Assembly: GCF_001305575.3 (NCBI RefSeq)
Contig: NZ_CP012373.2
Location: forward strand, 2,170,001-2,234,000
Length of the DNA stretch: 64,000 nucleotides
Direction of reading: 5' to 3'
Source of the DNA: Beggiatoa leptomitoformis
GTDB lineage: Bacteria; Pseudomonadota; Gammaproteobacteria; Beggiatoales; Beggiatoaceae
How positions within the stretch are numbered: position 1 is the stretch's first letter; each line of letters starts with the position of its first letter. The notes beneath the pieces were generated by a model, which was not told where the DNA came from, ran no database searches, and saw only the letters and a program-made list of their open reading frames with translations. Positions 41,156 through 51,194 of the stretch are shown here, piece by piece. A program made the translations under genes and the position numbers.

Positions 41156-41544
41156 ATCCTGACATCCCCTGATATTTGGTCTGTGAAAAAGTGTGTCATT
41201 ATAATTGTTATTCATGTGTTACAGAAATGTAACAGTCAAATAACAGTGTGGCACACGCTTAATAAAAACGCTAGTGTTAATTTTTATGTTTTTCAAGATA
41301 ATATATATATTTTTCAGCCATATAATGTTTTTCATAAACAGATTTAAATGTGTAAAAAACCCAAGTTTTCCCCCTATTAATAAGACTAAATACCAATCTA
41401 TCCTTTAATTTTAAGGATTAATTTAGTTTTTAAAGAAAGCCAATTTTTATAAATGCACTATTCTGTTAAATAGATGAAATATTTTCAATAATCGTGTCAC
41501 CCAATGTAGCTAGTAAAAGTAACGTTGTGGTTGAGGAAAATAAT
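41156..41544. other. Divergent intergenic region with two short palindromes
   Basis: An AT-rich stretch between the sigma-54 activator and the exoprotein gene. TGTTAC-N6-GTAACA (41217-41234) and GTGTGGCACAC (41246-41256) are perfect short dyads that could be operators for the adjacent regulator. CCTTTAATTTTAAGG (41402-41416) lies beside a 13-nt motif (41384-41396) also found before the comEA-like gene. No -35/-10 pair stood out. Confidence 0.45.
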
Positions 41545-44370
41545 ATGACGAAATACCTTTTTTACGTCGTTACCGTCTCGCTAAGCTTCATTTTTAGCTA
41601 TATAGCACAGGCTGATATTGTGTTAGATGGCACCATTGGTACAGCAACAGAAGCAACACGGATTAATGAATCATTAATATCAACACCAAATAAGGGAGAA
41701 CAAAATGCCTTTGTGATTACGCCTAATTTGGGCGCGCAGTATGGGAGCAATTTATTTTATAGTTTTAAGGAGTTTAATTTACAATCTGGCGAAATAGCTG
41801 ATTTTACAGTAGGGCAAGGCGCTGAGATACAGAATATTATTAGTCGGGTAACTGGTGGTAGTGCTTCTTTTATCGATGGAACATTAAGATCGGATCTCGT
41901 TGACGGTAACTTATTTTTTCTCAATCCATACGGCGTTATTTTTGGTGAAAACTCACAGATCGAACTATTCAGTTCATTTCATGTGTCCACCGCAGATACC
42001 CTTATGTTAGGAACGGATGGGGAATTTAACGCACGTTTTCCTGAACAGAGTATCTTGAGTAGCGCGCCTCCCAGTGCTTATGGTTTTTTAACAAATACAC
42101 CTGCAAGCATTGATTTGCAAAGTACAAAAATGATTAGTTTTAATAATAACATTACGTTAACGGGAGGTGAAATTAATATTAAAGATAGTTTGTTATGGGC
42201 TGTTTCTAAACGTATAGCACTGGTTAGTTTAGCCAACCAAGGAATAGTTTCATTTAATGCAGAAGCAGGCGAAGAAAATATGGATGTAAGTTCCACAACA
42301 GCACGCGGTAATATCACCATTGATGATAGCTACTTATTGGTATCGGGTGCTAACGTGAATAACGAAACACTAACCGTTAATACGCAAAAAGCGGGGGACT
42401 TATATATCTATGGCGGAAAATTTATTGTTAGGAATAGTTTATTAATGAGTGGTGGTGTGCTTGATTTATCTATAGATGATACTAATCCCGATATCATCAA
42501 TAATGAAGATAGTGGCAGTATCACGATGCAAATTAACTCGCTTAAATTAGAAAACAGCTTTATCACAACATTAACAAATGGTAGCGGTAAAGGAGGCAAT
42601 GTTTATATTTTTGCTGAAGAATTTGTAGATATTGGTGGAACAAAAAAAGACGAATCTAATAATGATGAAATACGAACGAGTCAAATTTCAGCAAATACGT
42701 TAAGTACCAGCGAAAATGCAGGACAAGCAGGCATTATTTATGTAGAAACCCCCGTTTTACTACTGCATGATGGTGGAAAACTGGATAGTTCATCTGGCGG
42801 ATGGGGCGATGCTGGCGGAATTCTTGTTAAAGCAGATGAAATTGATATCAATGGCAGCACAATGGTAGATACTGACAATAATCCTTATAGTGGTTTGTTT
42901 GTCAATTCCACCGATACCTCAGAAAACGCAGGCGATGCAGGATTAATTGCGATTGAAACAAAGAATATGCGCCTAACGGATGGAGGACAAATTAGCAGTA
43001 GTACCTCGGGCGGTGGAAATGGTGGGGTAATTGCGATTGCCGCAAGTGATACATTAACAATAGGCAATGCAAATATAGGTAATCCCTTAGAAGACCCAAA
43101 GGACATTATAGATGAAGTGAAGGATAAACCAGTGGCTGAACATACTGATGAAGGCGATATTCCCTCCCGAACCACCACCAGCGGTATTTTTGCCGCGTCA
43201 ACCAATACAACCCTAGAAACAAGTGGTAATGCAGGGGCTGTAATGATTCAAGCAAAAAATGTCGATATGAATAATGGTTTTATCACCACTACAACGCGCG
43301 GTAGTGGAAATGCAGGCACAGTGAGCATCATCGCTGATAATTTGTACATGCTTAATGGGGCAAATCTCTCTAGTTCTACAGAAGGGAGTGGTAATGGCGG
43401 AACGATTACCTTACAGATTAGTGATACATTAAACATGCAAGCAGGGGAACTTCAAAAAGAATTTGCTTATCCCACGGTAATTCAAGCAACCTCTAGTAAT
43501 GCAGATATTGAAAATGCAGGTCAGTCTGGCAACATCAAAATTGATGCCAAAAATCTGACAATGAACGGTTCACTTATTGCCAGTTCAACCAATGGAACTG
43601 GTGCAAGTAATCTCATAGAGATAAATGCAGACACCGTTGAAATTAGTGGTAGCACAATTCTGGAAGGTAAAATGCGCCATGCGGGTATTTATGCCAATTC
43701 GGAAAGCACTGAGACAAATGCAGGACAAGCAGGCGAGATACACCTGACCGCTCAAACGTTAACATTAAAAGAGGGGGGCAGTATTAACACCTCCACACAA
43801 AATGCAGACGGTGGCAACATTATCCTAACCATTCCAACCCAAATTTATTTACGTGATGGCGGTAACATTACTACCAGTGTTCGTGGTGGAACAGGAAATG
43901 GCGGCAATATCACCATCCAATCCCCCCACTTTGTCATTATTGATAAAGGACAAATTGTTGCACAAGCAGCTGATGGCAATGGTGGTAATATCACCGTTAC
44001 AACCGACCAATTTTTAGCCTCGACCGCCGCCCAAACGCAAGTTGATGCCAGTTCAAAAAAGGGAATTTCTGGAAAAATTGTCATTACCTCACCCATTGTC
44101 GACATAAGCGGTAATGTTATTAGCTTGCCCACTAACTTTTTAAATGCAACGACTCAATTACAAGCTAAATGCGGCGGGCTAGGGGAACAATTAGAAAGTC
44201 GTTTTATCGTACGGAGTTTACAAGGGATAGGCAAAACCCCGCGCGACTTGCGCACCATGACCGCTTATACCCCGTCCAAATCGACAGAGGTCGCACAAAA
44301 AACCACAAAACTACCCGATTTGAGCGGACAATTATTTGTACAAGTTCGTTGTGGGAAGAAAACAGCCTAA
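41545..44370 (+). CDS. Two-partner-secretion exoprotein (filamentous haemagglutinin N-terminal domain)
   Basis: A 941-residue TpsA-like protein with a signal peptide (MTKYLFYVVTVSLSFIFSYIAQA), a TPS/haemagglutination-activity domain at about 24-150 containing 'NLFFLNPYGVIFGENSQIEL' region, and a long beta-helix of Gly/Asn/Thr-rich repeats ('GSGNGGTITL', 'GTGNGGNITI', 'SENAGQAG'). Such proteins are threaded through an outer membrane TpsB pore and act as adhesins. It has exactly two cysteines, Cys876 and Cys936, both near the C-terminus, as in HMW1-type anchored adhesins. No TpsB gene lies in the window. The start at 41545 has a GAGGAA site; the frame from 41494 (GTG) adds 17 residues before the signal peptide. 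Confidence 0.9.
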   Translation: MTKYLFYVVTVSLSFIFSYIAQADIVLDGTIGTATEATRINESLISTPNKGEQNAFVITPNLGAQYGSNLFYSFKEFNLQSGEIADFTVGQGAEIQNIISRVTGGSASFIDGTLRSDLVDGNLFFLNPYGVIFGENSQIELFSSFHVSTADTLMLGTDGEFNARFPEQSILSSAPPSAYGFLTNTPASIDLQSTKMISFNNNITLTGGEINIKDSLLWAVSKRIALVSLANQGIVSFNAEAGEENMDVSSTTARGNITIDDSYLLVSGANVNNETLTVNTQKAGDLYIYGGKFIVRNSLLMSGGVLDLSIDDTNPDIINNEDSGSITMQINSLKLENSFITTLTNGSGKGGNVYIFAEEFVDIGGTKKDESNNDEIRTSQISANTLSTSENAGQAGIIYVETPVLLLHDGGKLDSSSGGWGDAGGILVKADEIDINGSTMVDTDNNPYSGLFVNSTDTSENAGDAGLIAIETKNMRLTDGGQISSSTSGGGNGGVIAIAASDTLTIGNANIGNPLEDPKDIIDEVKDKPVAEHTDEGDIPSRTTTSGIFAASTNTTLETSGNAGAVMIQAKNVDMNNGFITTTTRGSGNAGTVSIIADNLYMLNGANLSSSTEGSGNGGTITLQISDTLNMQAGELQKEFAYPTVIQATSSNADIENAGQSGNIKIDAKNLTMNGSLIASSTNGTGASNLIEINADTVEISGSTILEGKMRHAGIYANSESTETNAGQAGEIHLTAQTLTLKEGGSINTSTQNADGGNIILTIPTQIYLRDGGNITTSVRGGTGNGGNITIQSPHFVIIDKGQIVAQAADGNGGNITVTTDQFLASTAAQTQVDASSKKGISGKIVITSPIVDISGNVISLPTNFLNATTQLQAKCGGLGEQLESRFIVRSLQGIGKTPRDLRTMTAYTPSKSTEVAQKTTKLPDLSGQLFVQVRCGKKTA

Positions 44371-44480: not shown

Positions 44481-47400
44481 TTAAATAACCTTGTTTACCA
44501 CACTTAATAATAAACGTCGTTTATCATTTAAAATAACCCGACTTGCCATTACGTTGGTCTCGAAAATCGCGCCTGTACGATGCTGTTCATTACGCTGCCT
44601 ATACATAATGGCCTGCTCATTGGTCATCAACAAACTGTAATATTCACGAACTGCCTCACTGTGTGTGTTAGACGGTAAAACTAGCGTGAATGGTTGCCCT
44701 AATAACTCATCTTGACGATACCCATAAAACTCTGCGTATGTCCGATTAACACGTAAAAAACGTCCTCGATCATCCGTTAAGCATAAACCCAGTTTACTCG
44801 CATCAAAAACCGCCGATAACATCACATCATCATCATGCAATGCATCATCATCATAACTATCTAGCGGGATTTCATAGCCTAAATACCATGTAAACCACTT
44901 AGGCAATGCAAAATATTTAGCTAAATCGTACCAAACGACATTTTTTAATTGTCCATCTTTTGCTGTGAGTAAACTTTCCCAATGGAATGACGCTTGATTA
45001 CTAGTGCTAAATAAAATGTCCTCTAATTGATCGATACTGGGATAAAGCTGCTTGAGCGCGGCAGGATCACCCACCATTTCCTCACCACTATAACCCGTTA
45101 TAGTAGTACACATTTCATTCCAAACCATTAAGGTTCTTTCTTTATCAAAAGCCATGAGCATAAACGGCAGCTTTTGCAAAGCCTCATAAACACTCTCATC
45201 AGTCGGTTTATTCGCAGATAAAGACATATTATCTTGCAATTGTATGGCATAGACGATAACCCCACTGACACGCCCCAAGCCGTCATGATAAGGCAATTTA
45301 TCAATTTTCAAGCGTACCGCATCGCCTGTTTTAGTTGGATAAGTTTGTATAATACCAAACTGAGCCAGTCCATTACGCAATACATCTTTACCATCCGTCA
45401 GTTGCATAACCAACGGATTACCTGTTCCAAATGTTGTATCGGCTAATAAATTTTGTCTTACCAACTGGTTTTCCCTATCACGATACCAAATAAAAGCAGG
45501 TATCGTATTGAGAATAACGTGATTTTCCTCTGCCTGCTTGTACAACGTGTCGCGTGTACGTTGCTGTTCGCTAATATCATGCAACAAACCAAAACTAAAT
45601 AAAATATTGCCACCTGTATCCCGTACCGCATCCACCCGTTCCCACACAGGGAAAAGTTGCCCCTCTTGCGTATGAACCTCTAACTCTCCTTCCCAACTTC
45701 CGCCCTCTTCTAAAGCGGGTACAACATCACTTTCCCAAACCATCAACGATGAATCTGAATAATAAGTCCGATAATTCATCTGACGAGAATCTTTTGTGGA
45801 ATAACCCAAGAGTTTTTCATGTGCAGGATTGACGTAAACCACTTGTCCTTCGGGATTACTAACAAAAATAGCTTCAGCAGATGACTCAATAATAGACTTA
45901 AATAATCGCAAATGTCCTTGCGCTTTTTTGCGCTCAGTCACATCGATACCAACACCAAAGATATAATCTAATGCACCATTTGCCTTAACAATCGCGCGAC
46001 TATGCCACTCTACCAACAAAGGCACGCCTGATTTACTAATGACATGACTTTCTAACAAAGAGGGCTGCATTGATTTGCGTAACGTATCGAATTCTGTTGC
46101 GACAATGCCACGTTCACTTTCTGGTACAAACGTTAAATATTCCTTACCTGCAACCTCATCTAATACATAACCCAATGCGTTCAACATCGCCTTATTCATC
46201 AAACGAATTTTACCATCAGGCTCAAGCGCAAAGAAAAAAGCAGGCGAGGCTTGCACCAACATATTGATAAAATCGCGTTCTTTACGCAAAGCCTCTTCGG
46301 CCGCTTTACGCTCTGTAATATCACGCACCGTCGCACAGATTAATGAACGTCCTTGAAACAAATAAGTATTACCCGTAGAAATTTCTACAGGAAACACCGT
46401 ACCATCTTTCTTCCGATGCCAACGTAAAGGGATAGTTTGAACTTTTTTCGTTGTCCCCCCCCCAAACGCTGAACGTTGTTTCATCGACTCGGCGGACACT
46501 TCCTCTGTTTTTAGCCGTAACCAATCTTCCTTACTAAAACCATATAAATCAACAGCCGCATGATTCACATCAAAAATTTGCTGTGTATTCGCATCAAAAA
46601 CAATTGTAGGGTTAGAAGATGCCTCAAACAATTGCCGATATTTAGACTCACTTTCCCACAACGCCGTTTCAATTTTTTGGCGTTCGCTAATATCATGCAC
46701 AATCAACATTAAGACTTGTTTTCCACGCCAAATAAAGGGGTTTGCAGTCACTTCTACAGGAAAAACCGTACCATCTTCTTTTTTATGATACTGCTGCGAC
46801 GTATATTTCAGACCCTTTTTAATGGATTTAGCCGTTTTTTCAGGTTGTGCAGATAAATCCAAGGTCTTCATTTTGAGCAAATCATTACGCCCATAACCAT
46901 ACATCTGCACAGCCGCTTTATTTAGCTCTAAAATCCCTGTAGATTCCGCGTCAATCATAAATACAGCATTATTTTCTACTTCAAGCAACTGCCGATATTT
47001 TTTCTCCGTCTCTTGTAATTCTTCCTCTACCCGTCGCGTTTCAGTAACGTCAATATGCGTACCAACCATGCGTTGTGGCTTACCATTCGCATCACGTACC
47101 AACACAGCACGGCTCAAAATCCACCGATAACTTCCATCCTTATGTTGCAAACGATGCGTATTTTCACAAACGGGTGTAACCCCTTCTAAGTGATTTTGTA
47201 TATCCGCCATGACTTTTTTATAATCTGAAGGATGAATACGTTGATGCCATGTATCAATATGATTTGGCAATTCAGCCTCTTCAAACCCCAACATTTTTTT
47301 CCAACGGCTAGAAAAATACACCTCATTACTGTCTAAATTCCAATCCCATAACTCATAATTATTATCCGTCACTGTCTCAGGAGAACTGCTACGCTTCTGA

Positions 47401-48161
47401 ATTTCCTTACGAATAGTCAGCTCATTTTCCTTATAATGACTAATATCCGAAAAAGAAATGACGACCGCATACGGCGTAGTCACATCATCCCGCCACAAAG
47501 GATAAGAATTAACCCGTAACCAAAATATACTCTCATCCGATTTCACAACACCCATCACCACATCAGAATAGGCTTGTCCCGTGCGTAAAGTACAAATAGC
47601 AGGATGTGTTTCTGTTGGAAAGGGTGAACCATCTTCATGAATTGCCCGCCAATCAGGGTCTATAAGAGTCCAACCCATCATCTGTTCCGCAGGTAAACCA
47701 ATAATTTGCTCAGCACTTGGATTACACGCGCCGATAGTTCCATTCGCATATTGCAACACAACACCCTCTTGCAACACGCTCAGGATTTCATCAGCAATCA
47801 TCGGTTGCTCACGTCCTGTGATGTCCATACCAACAGCATGATAAGCATATTCTTGCGATGCTGCACCATTGATTTCCCACAGAATCTGGCGATAAGTTCC
47901 ATCATGATGACGGAAACGACAGGCAAACGACACCGAAGCCATGCCTTTTTCTAGCTGCTCAAAATAATATTTGGTTGAAGGCTGATCTTCCTGATGAACA
48001 AAGGCAAAAAAAGTCTTTGCCAACAATTGCCCTGTGGATAAGCCTAGCGTTTTTTCCCAAGCAGCGTTCACTTCCTTAAATTGACACTCCATATCAAGAA
48101 TGCCGAACATTGCGGATGAACGCCAGAAAAAGCGTGAGTGACGAGGGTTGTTCACTGCCAT
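44481..48161 (-). CDS. Giant multi-PAS protein (about ten PAS domains) without an output domain
   Basis: A 1226-residue soluble protein made almost wholly of PAS domains, at roughly 10-117, 122-243, 265-375, 388-495, 506-612, 625-740, 745-865, 868-975, 985-1095 and 1098-1226. Domains are spaced by PAC endings such as 'GMDITGREQ', 'HIDVTETRR', 'VHDISERQK', 'VRDITERKA' and 'GIDVTERKK'. No histidine-kinase, GGDEF, EAL, HAMP, helix-turn-helix or membrane segment is visible; the chain stops in the tenth PAS domain. PAS domains bind haem, flavin or small ligands or mediate dimerisation. It may be a sensor that acts by binding a partner, or the front half of a broken kinase. Codons 567-569 are GGG GGG GGG (a G9 tract). 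Confidence 0.9.
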   Translation of the reverse strand: MAVNNPRHSRFFWRSSAMFGILDMECQFKEVNAAWEKTLGLSTGQLLAKTFFAFVHQEDQPSTKYYFEQLEKGMASVSFACRFRHHDGTYRQILWEINGAASQEYAYHAVGMDITGREQPMIADEILSVLQEGVVLQYANGTIGACNPSAEQIIGLPAEQMMGWTLIDPDWRAIHEDGSPFPTETHPAICTLRTGQAYSDVVMGVVKSDESIFWLRVNSYPLWRDDVTTPYAVVISFSDISHYKENELTIRKEIQKRSSSPETVTDNNYELWDWNLDSNEVYFSSRWKKMLGFEEAELPNHIDTWHQRIHPSDYKKVMADIQNHLEGVTPVCENTHRLQHKDGSYRWILSRAVLVRDANGKPQRMVGTHIDVTETRRVEEELQETEKKYRQLLEVENNAVFMIDAESTGILELNKAAVQMYGYGRNDLLKMKTLDLSAQPEKTAKSIKKGLKYTSQQYHKKEDGTVFPVEVTANPFIWRGKQVLMLIVHDISERQKIETALWESESKYRQLFEASSNPTIVFDANTQQIFDVNHAAVDLYGFSKEDWLRLKTEEVSAESMKQRSAFGGGTTKKVQTIPLRWHRKKDGTVFPVEISTGNTYLFQGRSLICATVRDITERKAAEEALRKERDFINMLVQASPAFFFALEPDGKIRLMNKAMLNALGYVLDEVAGKEYLTFVPESERGIVATEFDTLRKSMQPSLLESHVISKSGVPLLVEWHSRAIVKANGALDYIFGVGIDVTERKKAQGHLRLFKSIIESSAEAIFVSNPEGQVVYVNPAHEKLLGYSTKDSRQMNYRTYYSDSSLMVWESDVVPALEEGGSWEGELEVHTQEGQLFPVWERVDAVRDTGGNILFSFGLLHDISEQQRTRDTLYKQAEENHVILNTIPAFIWYRDRENQLVRQNLLADTTFGTGNPLVMQLTDGKDVLRNGLAQFGIIQTYPTKTGDAVRLKIDKLPYHDGLGRVSGVIVYAIQLQDNMSLSANKPTDESVYEALQKLPFMLMAFDKERTLMVWNEMCTTITGYSGEEMVGDPAALKQLYPSIDQLEDILFSTSNQASFHWESLLTAKDGQLKNVVWYDLAKYFALPKWFTWYLGYEIPLDSYDDDALHDDDVMLSAVFDASKLGLCLTDDRGRFLRVNRTYAEFYGYRQDELLGQPFTLVLPSNTHSEAVREYYSLLMTNEQAIMYRQRNEQHRTGAIFETNVMASRVILNDKRRLLLSVVNKVI

Positions 48162-48370: not shown

Positions 48371-48763
48371 TCATTCGCCCATCAGATAAAACCATTGTTG
48401 GTCAATTCGTTCAAATTGGCTAATTTCTTCTAAACGACCGCCACGTCCCGTCGCAAGTTTATAATAGGCTCTAAAATGGACAGTACCCTGAATATCTGTC
48501 GCTTTACCCGCTTGGGTTTTTACAACTTCTAAGGCTACCCAACGACATGAGTCATCAAGTATCAACGTTGCAGGACGTGTGTTTGGATGCCATGTTGTCT
48601 GCAAATAATCAACATTTCCCAATACATAAGCGGTATAACGAGAGCGCATTAAGGCTTCTGCTGTCAGTGGATAATCTTGCCTTTGTAAATAAGGCTCACA
48701 ACAGCGTTGTAAAACTTGACCAGAACCACACGGACAAGTGGTTATTATCGTTTTTTTTGCCAT
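48371..48763 (-). CDS. ychJ: YchJ family protein with SEC-C zinc motif
   Basis: A 130-residue protein with the N-terminal metal motif 'CPCGSGQVLQRCCEPYL' (SEC-C) and 'TAEALMRSRYTAYVLGNVDYL', followed by an NTF2-like fold ('HPNTRPATL', 'VHFRAYYK'). This is UPF0225/YchJ; its function is not established. Its ATG overlaps the mlaE stop by one nt (TAATG), so it is translationally coupled to the lipid-transport permease gene. Confidence 0.92.
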   Translation of the reverse strand: MAKKTIITTCPCGSGQVLQRCCEPYLQRQDYPLTAEALMRSRYTAYVLGNVDYLQTTWHPNTRPATLILDDSCRWVALEVVKTQAGKATDIQGTVHFRAYYKLATGRGGRLEEISQFERIDQQWFYLMGE

Positions 48764-49545
48764 TAAACATCACTAAACATGATAGCTGTCAACATAAAAT
48801 CTAACGCAAGCGTTGCCAGTGCAGAATAAACAACCGTGCGCGTTGTCGCACGACTGACACCTTCAGACGTAGGTAAACAATCATAACCTTCAAAAACGGC
48901 AATCCAAGTTACGGCAATACCAAACACAAAACTTTTAAGTAAACCATTAAAAATATCATCATACAGTTCAACCGTGCTTTGCATTTGTGACCAGTAAGAA
49001 CCCGAATCTACCCCGAGCAAATTAACAACAACTAAATGCCCCCCAAAAATACCTATCATATTAAACATCGCGGCTAACAAAGGCATTGCCAATACACCCG
49101 CCACAAAACGCGGTGCCATAACACGGTGATAAGGATTAACGGCCATCATTTCCATCGCGGCAAGCTGTTCTGTTGCTTTCATTAAACCGATTTCTGCCGT
49201 CAGTGCTGAACCTGCACGTCCTGCAAATAAAATAGCCGTCAATACAGACCCTAACTCCCGCAACAAGGACAAAGAAACCATGACACCTAACATTTCTGTC
49301 GCGTTAAAATTAACTAAAATATTATAACCTTGCAAACCAAGCACCATGCCAACAAACAAACCTGATACCAAAATAAGGCTTAAAGACAAAACCCCAACAG
49401 AATACAATTGCATGACCACCAAACGCGGACGCAACAATAAACTGGGTAAACCGCTAAGCAGATGCAACATAAAAAGCACACTCCGCCCTAACCGTTCGAA
49501 AAGCGCAAGTGTTTGACTACCTATCTGTTGAAATTGGTCTAACAT
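48763..49545 (-). CDS. mlaE: MlaE-type ABC permease (phospholipid/toluene transport)
   Basis: A 260-residue inner membrane protein with the MlaE/YrbE/TrnD signature: 'LSLLRELGSVLTAILFAGRAGSALTAEIG' region near residue 95 (seen as RELGSVLTAILFAGRAGSAL) and 'EGYDCLPTSEGVSRATTRTVV' at the end. Partners normally include MlaF, MlaD, MlaC and MlaB, forming a system that moves phospholipids between membranes. The start at 49545 (MLDQFQQIG) follows a GGAG site; an upstream GTG at 49563 overlaps the mlaF stop. No mlaD, mlaB or mlaC lies beside it. Confidence 0.94.
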   Translation of the reverse strand: MLDQFQQIGSQTLALFERLGRSVLFMLHLLSGLPSLLLRPRLVVMQLYSVGVLSLSLILVSGLFVGMVLGLQGYNILVNFNATEMLGVMVSLSLLRELGSVLTAILFAGRAGSALTAEIGLMKATEQLAAMEMMAVNPYHRVMAPRFVAGVLAMPLLAAMFNMIGIFGGHLVVVNLLGVDSGSYWSQMQSTVELYDDIFNGLLKSFVFGIAVTWIAVFEGYDCLPTSEGVSRATTRTVVYSALATLALDFMLTAIMFSDV

Positions 49546-49562
49546 CACTGAGTTGCTCCACA

Positions 49563-50375
49563 CTACTTATCGCCCAATAAATCGGTTTCATAATCCATTC
49601 CCTGATAATGAAAAGGAACAGGTCCATCAGGTTCAGCATTGATAAATTGCCGTACCCACGCGGAGCTTGATTGACGTAACTCATCAGGATGCCCTTCACC
49701 AACCACTTTACCATTCGCAATAATGTAGATTTTATCGGCAATACTGGCCGTTTCATGAATATCATGCGACACAATCAAACTAGTTACCCCCAACGACTTA
49801 TTAATCGAACTAATCAAACGAACTAACACCCCCATAGAAATTGGGTCTTGTCCTGTAAATGGCTCATCATACATAATCATTGTTGGGTCAAGCACTAACG
49901 CACGAGCCAATGCAACACGGCGCGCCATTCCACCTGATAATTGGCTAGGCATTAACGCACGGGCATTACGTAAACCAACGGCTTGTAATTTCATCAACAC
50001 CAAGTTTCTAATCAAGGCTTCCGATAACTGCGTATGTTCCCTTAAAGGAAAAGCGACGTTTTCAAAAACCGTAAGGTCTGTTAATAACGCACCACTTTGA
50101 AACAACATGCCCATCTGCTTACGAATTTTATATAATTCATTTAAAGATAACTTATTAATATCCAAGCCATTTACTTCAATTGTGCCTGCTTGGGGACGCA
50201 ATTGTCGTCCGATAAGACTTAAAAGCGTTGTTTTTCCCGTACCGCTAGGACCCATAATGGCCGTAATTTTGCCGCGCGGAATATCCATATCGACATTATC
50301 AAAAATAAGGTGTTTACCGCGAGAAAAGCGTAAACCCCGTACTTTAACCAAACTATCATTTGCTGTTTCTGTCAT
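49563..50375 (-). CDS. mlaF: MlaF-type ABC transporter ATP-binding protein
   Basis: A 270-residue ATPase with Walker A 'GPSGTGKTTLLSLIG' near residue 43, Q-loop, signature 'LSGGMARRVALARAL' near 148, Walker B 'PTMIMYDEPFTGQDPIS' and H-loop 'SHDIHETASIAD'. Sequence and adjacency to mlaE identify it as the MlaF subunit. An AGGA site precedes the ATG at 50375; the permuted-papain gene ends 3 nt upstream. Confidence 0.94.
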   Translation of the reverse strand: MTETANDSLVKVRGLRFSRGKHLIFDNVDMDIPRGKITAIMGPSGTGKTTLLSLIGRQLRPQAGTIEVNGLDINKLSLNELYKIRKQMGMLFQSGALLTDLTVFENVAFPLREHTQLSEALIRNLVLMKLQAVGLRNARALMPSQLSGGMARRVALARALVLDPTMIMYDEPFTGQDPISMGVLVRLISSINKSLGVTSLIVSHDIHETASIADKIYIIANGKVVGEGHPDELRQSSSAWVRQFINAEPDGPVPFHYQGMDYETDLLGDK

Positions 50376-50378
50376 GCT

Positions 50379-51194
50379 TTATCCTACTTTTTTCCAGACT
50401 TCTTCTAAATCAGTGTTGGTAAATGTATCAGCTTCAATGACACGCCGTTGTTGGAAAAAAATCTTTTGTTTTGTGGGTTCAATGTCATAATTCCAGCAAA
50501 TACTTTTAGTGGCAAAATAAATAAGTTCTGTACACGACAATGGAGAAAAATTATCAAAACCAAAATCAGCAGGATGCGGTGTTATCAACTCACTTAATGC
50601 AACGCGATAAATAATTTTAAATAAAGTGTCAAAGTGTAAACTATCCCCTTGTGCAAGTCGCGTCATAATATCTATTTCAGCTTTTAATACAGCTGCTTGA
50701 TGACTTTTAGCTTCAACTTTAGCATATTCAGTTAAATAATTTAAAACGGTATCGGGGGGAATACGCCCTTTTTGCAACACCAATTGTTGCGGGAAACGCA
50801 AAATTGCCAACGCATCACAACGACAAAATTGAATTAAATCCTCCAAAATCACCGTATCTGCTAAGGCATGAATGACCATTTGCGTACCTGTTGCATAACG
50901 TTCGGGTTTATCAACTTTAGCAATTTGGCGTAAATGATTTTCCGTTACTTCGCCTAAATATAAACCTGCATGGGTAAACGTACCCTTAACAAAATATTTA
51001 TCTAAATAATTGTTATATGTTCGTAAAAGAATGTCACCCGGTTTAATCAAGTGCATCACCTCTTGCGTATCTTTACCTTTTATCAAAAAACTATGCGGTT
51101 GATAAACAATAAATAAAGGTGATTTGTAACCTTTCAAACGGCTTAAGAATGTCAACAGTTTTTCCACAAATGATTTTTTACGCTCAACTTGCAT
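50379..51194 (-). CDS. YiiX/permuted NlpC/P60 papain-like hydrolase
   Basis: A 271-residue protein of the circularly permuted NlpC/P60 (LRAT-like, YiiX/YebB, DUF830) type. Instead of Cys first, the His motif comes first: 'GTFTHAGLYLGEV' near residue 76, and the Cys motif 'LSCTELIYFATKS' follows near 236. 'IKPGDILLRTYN' near residue 46 is also typical. No signal peptide is seen. The family includes amidases and acyltransferases; the substrate here is unknown. It is the first gene of a minus-strand operon with mlaF, mlaE and ychJ, with gaps or overlaps of a few nt, which suggests a role in envelope lipid handling (inference). Confidence 0.85.
   Translation of the reverse strand: MQVERKKSFVEKLLTFLSRLKGYKSPLFIVYQPHSFLIKGKDTQEVMHLIKPGDILLRTYNNYLDKYFVKGTFTHAGLYLGEVTENHLRQIAKVDKPERYATGTQMVIHALADTVILEDLIQFCRCDALAILRFPQQLVLQKGRIPPDTVLNYLTEYAKVEAKSHQAAVLKAEIDIMTRLAQGDSLHFDTLFKIIYRVALSELITPHPADFGFDNFSPLSCTELIYFATKSICWNYDIEPTKQKIFFQQRRVIEADTFTNTDLEEVWKKVG

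What the first reader, a model, noticed from the sequence alone, without database searches (positions are those of the whole stretch)
48371..51194. MlaF-MlaE with a permuted papain-like hydrolase and YchJ, but no MlaD/C/B
Four tightly coupled genes encode a YiiX-type hydrolase with His-then-Cys order, an ABC ATPase, its permease and YchJ. The usual periplasmic and lipid-binding partners are not adjacent. A permuted NlpC/P60 (LRAT-like) enzyme could work on lipids carried by MlaFE, forming an unusual lipid-handling unit.
Basis: partly seen in the sequence, partly recalled or inferred. Interest (0 to 1): 0.6.

Follow-up and report, generated by a model that had tools for sequence, protein, structure and literature searches.

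The report
Broken-up Mla operon beside degenerate hydrolase
The lipid-transport genes here belong to an ordinary bacterial lipid transporter whose other parts lie elsewhere on the chromosome, and the enzyme-like protein beside them belongs to a small family that has mostly lost its catalytic residues, so it probably binds rather than cuts.

Summary
The four genes are real and tightly packed: a permuted NlpC/P60 (C92, YiiX-like) protein, MlaF, MlaE, YchJ. MlaD and MlaC are not adjacent, but the same chromosome holds MlaD, MlaC with a MlaB-like gene, and MlaA at other places, so MlaFE is most likely the core of an ordinary Mla system with a broken operon. The break is widespread in this Beggiatoa/Thioploca/Thiomargarita group: MlaD follows MlaE in 2 of 22 family genomes, against 8 of 8 loci held from other families. 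YchJ is a neighbour only in the two genomes of this genus. The C92 gene was found in 22 genomes of the group; MlaF lies within 3 kb downstream in 6, and is absent from at least 5 kb downstream in 9. The pairing thus recurs but is not fixed. The main new point: the catalytic Cys is present in only 6 of 22 and the His in 13 of 22; the same-genus relative, with the same gene order, lacks both (Ala, Asn). An FCRCD motif is invariant instead. The predicted fold matches YiiX (Z 12.2). A lipid-cleaving MlaFE enzyme is therefore unlikely as the family's general function; a non-catalytic lipid-binding protein is the better guess. Novelty is modest.

The parts
50379..51194 (-). C92/YiiX-like permuted NlpC/P60 protein, 271 aa; His75, His109, Cys221 and invariant F123-C-R-C-D127
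   Evidence: Pfam C92 just over the cut-off; predicted fold matches YiiX, Z 12.2; residue counts in 22 genomes
49563..50375 (-). MlaF, ABC ATPase
   Evidence: ABC_tran; best NCBIfam model MlaF, 390.3 bits, under its cut-off of 441
48763..49563 (-). MlaE permease (likely true start ATG at 49545)
   Evidence: MlaE model NF033619 397.7 bits against 315
48371..48763 (-). YchJ-like protein; neighbour, probably not part of the system
   Evidence: YchJ_M-like and SEC-C; linked to MlaE only in the two genomes of this genus

Best explanation
MlaF-MlaE here is the inner-membrane ATPase-permease of an ordinary Mla phospholipid transport system whose operon broke up in this group of sulfur bacteria: mlaFE parted from mlaDC in most of the family, and in this genus mlaD also lies apart from mlaC (the order of the breaks is inferred). 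The products are expected to assemble as usual from separate loci (inferred). The gene upstream of mlaF encodes a probably cytoplasmic or membrane-peripheral permuted NlpC/P60-fold protein (no signal sequence seen by eye) of a family found, in the collections searched, only in these bacteria. Its catalytic Cys and His were lost several times while the gene stayed constrained, so the job shared by the family is most likely non-catalytic: binding an acyl chain or lipid in the hydrophobic pocket described for this fold, and possibly tuning or scaffolding MlaFE or another membrane process. Shown: gene content, scattering, residue loss. Predicted: the fold. Inferred: lipid binding, contact with MlaFE.
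For: Own genome: MlaD at 432.8 kb, MlaC plus a MlaB-like protein at 2.599 Mb, MlaA at 1.926 Mb. Loci held from other families have MlaD beside MlaE in 8 of 8; family genomes in 2 of 22, of which two end at the contig edge right after MlaE. Of 14 family genomes with both, MlaD and MlaC are neighbours in 11, not in G000, G001, G010. C92 family: Cys 6 of 22, His 13 of 22, FCRCD 22 of 22; conservation ranks of C221 and H75 are 170th and 161st of 271; Cys/not-Cys takes 6 changes and His/not-His 5 on the tree. Same-genus relative: Asn and Ala with the same gene order. dN/dS of C92 between the two genus members about 0.26/1.97 (NG86, dS near saturation), so constrained. Distant ~500-aa relatives keep the His in 11 of 12 and a CSEL/CTEL motif in 9 of 12 by a simple pattern. 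Fold: YiiX Z 12.2, 3kw0 Z 10.9, H-REV107 Z 7.8. YiiX crystallised with a fatty acid (passages of PMC3142127 and PMC7387801).
Against: The window copy keeps His75 and Cys221, and all 6 members with Cys also have the His, so some members, this one included, may be active. Seven members have His with Ser in the Cys place; a Ser enzyme is not excluded. MlaF is absent from at least 5 kb downstream of C92 in 9 of 22 genomes, so a role unrelated to Mla is possible. The structure model is middling (pLDDT 69.8, pTM 0.72) and plain Foldseek found no match with E <= 0.001. MlaF is under the cut-off of its model. Nothing here shows lipid binding or an interaction.
Confidence: 0.6

Rival explanations
1. 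The C92 protein is an active lipid amidase, phospholipase or acyltransferase acting on lipids handled by MlaFE, and members without Cys or His are derived losses.
For: His75, His109 and Cys221 are present in the window copy; fold relatives YiiX and H-REV107; permuted NlpC/P60 proteins act on lipids: Tox-Act1 is a phospholipase and LnsA is needed for lipoprotein N-acylation (passages); C92 lies upstream of mlaFE on the same strand in 6 of 22 genomes.
Against: Catalytic Cys in 6 of 22 and His in 13 of 22 only; the same-genus relative with the same gene order lacks both; in 9 of 22 genomes no MlaF within at least 5 kb downstream.
Confidence: 0.2
2. The C92-MlaFE neighbourhood is chance and inheritance only: C92 came to lie upstream of mlaFE once in the group's history, has no functional tie, and is drifting away.
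For: Neighbours of C92 differ widely; on the 21-row C92 tree the near label needs 4 changes, at least 2 forced by well-supported branches (26 of 500 shuffles as low), which losses after one gain could give; in L102 and L105, family loci without C92 there, the same yciB-like gene (named by eye) sits next to mlaFE as it does next to C92-mlaFE in L043, L079 and L083.
Against: Three directly adjacent cases with 3, 3 and about 60 bases between, order and strand kept in all 6 near cases, including the Beggiatoa pair where the yciB-like side is absent.
Confidence: 0.2

Closest known systems
Mla phospholipid transport system (mlaFEDCB, mlaA)
   Same: MlaF, MlaE, MlaD, MlaC, a MlaB-like protein and MlaA are in the genome
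   Different: Genes in three separate places plus MlaA, instead of one mlaFEDCB operon
YiiX/YaeF, peptidase family C92 (2if6, 3kw0)
   Same: Predicted fold (Z 12.2 and 10.9); His-then-Cys order in the window copy
   Different: Lineage-restricted in the collections searched; catalytic residues lost in most members; invariant FCRCD; a poorly predicted N-terminal stretch of about 40 residues and, in many members, an inserted variable stretch
LRAT/H-REV107 family
   Same: Permuted NlpC/P60 fold (H-REV107 Z 7.8, HRASLS3/LRAT chimera Z 6.3); His in the third polar place of the window copy (that LRAT has His there is recalled)
   Different: Weaker structural match than YiiX; no sequence match to these in the solved-structure searches
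LnsA of Staphylococcus aureus
   Same: Permuted papain-like protein tied to lipid work (passages of PMC7387801)
   Different: Not compared by sequence; an LnsB partner was not sought

Membership tests
Mla system | MlaE permease by curated model | tested here: met
   NF033619 397.7 bits against 315
Mla system | MlaF ATPase by curated model | tested here: inconclusive
   Best model is MlaF, E 4e-117, but 390.3 bits is under the cut-off of 441
Mla system | MlaD, MlaC and MlaA in the genome | tested here: met
   Over the Pfam cut-off: MlaD, MlaC, MlaA
Mla system | MlaB in the genome | tested here: inconclusive
   A 99-aa protein after MlaC is similar (about 31-38% identity) to the MlaB-position proteins of intact operons; no family model was run on it
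Mla system | one mlaFEDCB operon | tested here: not met
   Three separate loci in the own genome; unity of the operon is a usual arrangement, not a need for function
Mla system | phospholipid transport between the membranes | not testable with these tools
   Needs experiment
C92/YiiX-like permuted NlpC/P60 | profile match over the curated cut-off | tested here: met
   27.3 bits against 27, over profile positions 2-76 of 166 only; of 6 relatives scanned 1 was over, 2 under, 3 had no match
C92/YiiX-like permuted NlpC/P60 | fold | tested here: met
   2if6 Z 12.2, 146 residues, rmsd 3.3; 3kw0 Z 10.9, on a model of pTM 0.72; Foldseek alone not significant
C92/YiiX-like permuted NlpC/P60 | catalytic His and Cys kept | tested here: inconclusive
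   Both in the window copy; in the family His 13 of 22, Cys 6 of 22
C92/YiiX-like permuted NlpC/P60 | amidase or acyl-chain activity | not testable with these tools
   Needs experiment

The most novel reading that the evidence does not exclude
A lineage-specific, mostly catalytically dead permuted NlpC/P60 protein serves as a cytoplasmic lipid-sensing partner or regulator of MlaFE in giant and filamentous sulfur bacteria, keeping the lipid pocket and a new invariant FCRCD site in place of the old active site.
Probability: 0.15. Interest if true: 0.6.

Novelty: new variant of a known kind. Interest (0 to 1): 0.3.

Why it matters
It shows that a seemingly partner-less MlaFE can be a complete but dispersed Mla system, and it points to a C92 lineage in which the active site was lost repeatedly while other residues stayed invariant: a natural set for asking what this lipid-binding fold does without catalysis, and whether it touches Mla transport.

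Tried and rejected
Missing Mla partners: rejected, they are elsewhere. YchJ as part of a four-gene unit: rejected, linked only in this genus. A mobile or viral origin of the C92 gene: no relatives of the alignment in viral contigs and none of the window protein in plasmids. Solved-structure look-up by sequence gave nothing useful, and plain Foldseek nothing significant; VIA-align gave the YiiX match. The promoter scan was at chance level, 9 found against 10.2 expected; terminator-like sites were 6 against 3.0 expected, one of them just after YchJ at 48360-48344; not used. The superfamily's conserved tyrosine (passage of PMC3142127) could not be placed safely in the alignment; the window has Ala where many relatives have Tyr, Phe or His. 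The YN00 estimate of dN/dS failed for C92; only NG86 is given. The tree kept the His and Cys columns in. Paper searches for Mla with Beggiatoa, mlaFEDCB with operon and scattered, YaeF/permuted/pseudoenzyme and MCE proteins with MlaE and genomic context listed no paper whose title or abstract start describes this arrangement; only the open library was searched and the listed papers other than three were not opened.

Full report
Observation. Pfam and NCBIfam name them Peptidase_C92 (27.3 bits, cut-off 27), an ABC ATPase closest to MlaF, MlaE and YchJ-like. The junctions are tight: 3 bases; a one-base overlap (or a 17-base gap if MlaE starts at the ATG at 49545); and a one-base overlap. The upstream neighbour is a histidine kinase on the same strand, 79 bases away; the downstream one is a protein of repeated PAS domains.

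The rest of Mla. The window lies at 2.170-2.234 Mb of a one-contig 4.27-Mb genome. That genome has a MlaD of 160 aa at 432.8 kb between genes that read as mutL and a glycosyltransferase (named by eye), MlaC followed by a 99-aa MlaB-like protein and an ABC transporter pair (by eye) at 2.599 Mb, and MlaA at 1.926 Mb. The 99-aa protein is similar to the proteins in the MlaB position of intact operons. A second MCE set is scattered too: a MlaE-type permease with a STAS-like N-terminus (by eye) at 3.196 Mb, a single-MCE protein at 1.008 Mb and a protein with two MCE matches at 1.278 Mb.

Relatives. Of the 40 genomes, 25 are of the own family, the window's genome included; 22 of these 25 have a close MlaE (67% identity or more); G004 and G014 have none and G016 only a distant one. 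MlaD directly follows MlaE in 2 of the 22 (G005, G010); for two (G002, G009) the contig ends right after MlaE. In 3 of the 22 (G007, G021, G022) the same comparison found no MlaF beside MlaE. From other families, 8 loci were held (MlaE identity 49-72%, one a fragment), and MlaD is beside MlaE in 8 of 8; further outgroup genomes have only more distant MlaE, without a locus here, or none. MlaD and MlaC were sought in 25 genomes, 16 of the family: 14 of the 16 have both, 11 of these as neighbours, not in G000, G001 and G010; G002 had neither hit and G014 only MlaC. So the parting of mlaFE from mlaD is common in the family, and in this genus D also lies apart from C. YchJ was found in 7 of the 16 family genomes; outside the genus none of the 3 that also have a close MlaE (G006, G010, G015) has it on the same contig.

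The C92 family. Close relatives occur in 11 of the 25 family genomes (G004 has only a distant ~500-aa protein, which G018 and G020 have besides; 13 have no match), at 17 loci of named genomes such as Parabeggiatoa, Thioploca, Thiomargarita and Halobeggiatoa, and in one more family genome, G306, among the 369 genomes; the other 9 genomes with a match there hold only distant, longer proteins. MlaF lies downstream on the same strand within 3 kb in 6: directly in the window, L038 and L043, and with two ORFs between in L083, L090 and L079. G002 (L091) is inferred from two contigs that carry the same intervening genes. Nine have at least 5 kb of downstream DNA without MlaF. Six contigs are too short to tell; for one of these six, G020, the MlaFE locus itself shows no C92 in about 4.3 kb upstream of MlaF (L101). 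On the C92 tree of 21 rows (without G306; L091 counted as near) the near label takes 4 changes, at least 2 forced; 26 of 500 shuffles were as low. The tree cannot tell one old linkage with losses from repeated gain.

The active site. In the alignment of 22, Cys is at position 221 in 6 (window, L043, L082, L086, L089, L117); 13 have Ser, and one each Ala, Gly and Asn. His is at position 75 in 13; 6 have Gln, 2 Asp, 1 Asn. All 6 with Cys also have His; 7 have His with Ser. The third polar place (109) is His, Tyr or Thr. FCRCD is in 22 of 22. C221 and H75 rank 170th and 161st of 271 in conservation. The same-genus relative has Asn and Ala with the same four-gene order. Distant ~500-aa relatives have the His in 11 of 12 and a CSEL/CTEL-like motif in 9 of 12 by a simple pattern, so loss is probably the derived state. 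Between the two genus members dN/dS (NG86) is about 0.26/1.97 for C92, 0.10/1.21 for MlaF, 0.07/1.46 for MlaE and 0.24/1.39 for YchJ (dS is high, so ratios are rough): C92 is constrained, though less so than MlaF and MlaE.

Fold. The model of the window protein (alignment of 18) has pLDDT 69.8 and pTM 0.72, with most of the first 40 residues poor. Foldseek alone gave no match with E <= 0.001. VIA-align over 641 of Foldseek's chains put YiiX first (2if6, Z 12.2, rmsd 3.3, 146 residues), then the Bacillus cereus cysteine peptidase 3kw0 (Z 10.9), a chain of a Euglena respiratory supercomplex (8iuf_E7, Z 8.1), H-REV107 (Z 7.8) and an HRASLS3/LRAT chimera (Z 6.3); the next row is at 3.8.

Literature, passages only. 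PMC3142127 describes permuted enzymes with a Cys/His/polar triad and a hydrophobic pocket and proposes specificity for lipid amides. PMC7387801 ties LnsA, distantly similar to YiiX, to lipoprotein N-acylation and calls the Cys/His dyad invariant in the superfamily. PMC12994826 reports a permuted member with phospholipase activity. Against that background a lineage with the dyad mostly lost is unusual.

Verdict. An ordinary Mla system with a dispersed operon, next to a lineage-specific, largely degenerate C92 protein whose most likely shared role is non-catalytic lipid binding; the tie to MlaFE is suggestive, not shown. That the organism is a Beggiatoa is inferred from its kin; no name was given.

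Noticed in passing
L079:6933-9376 and L090:6942-9451 (also L091, L099): Between C92 and MlaF of relatives sit a Schlafen/AlbA_2 protein and a ParA-like ATPase (for L039), in the same order in separate genomes; a related piece is in L083.
   Followed up: partly
L008:4141-5184, L009:4143-5270, G000 at 1.278 Mb: The second MCE lipid-transport set of this genome is scattered too: MlaE-type permease, single-MCE protein and two-MCE protein lie at three places.
   Followed up: partly
window 44481-48161: 1226-aa protein made of many PAS domains (9 PAS stretches); no kinase or cyclase domain listed by Pfam at E <= 1; the part held in the same-genus relative is 91% identical.
   Followed up: no
window 41494-44370: Long repetitive protein that reads like a haemagglutinin-type secreted exoprotein (named by eye, not scanned).
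   Followed up: no
L039:2005-2744 / L079:9684-10423: MlaF of this relative (G018) lies in two reading frames, perhaps a sequencing error.
   Followed up: no
PDB 8iuf_E7: A chain of the Euglena respiratory supercomplex matches the same permuted NlpC/P60-like model (Z 8.1): perhaps another case without catalysis; not examined.
   Followed up: no
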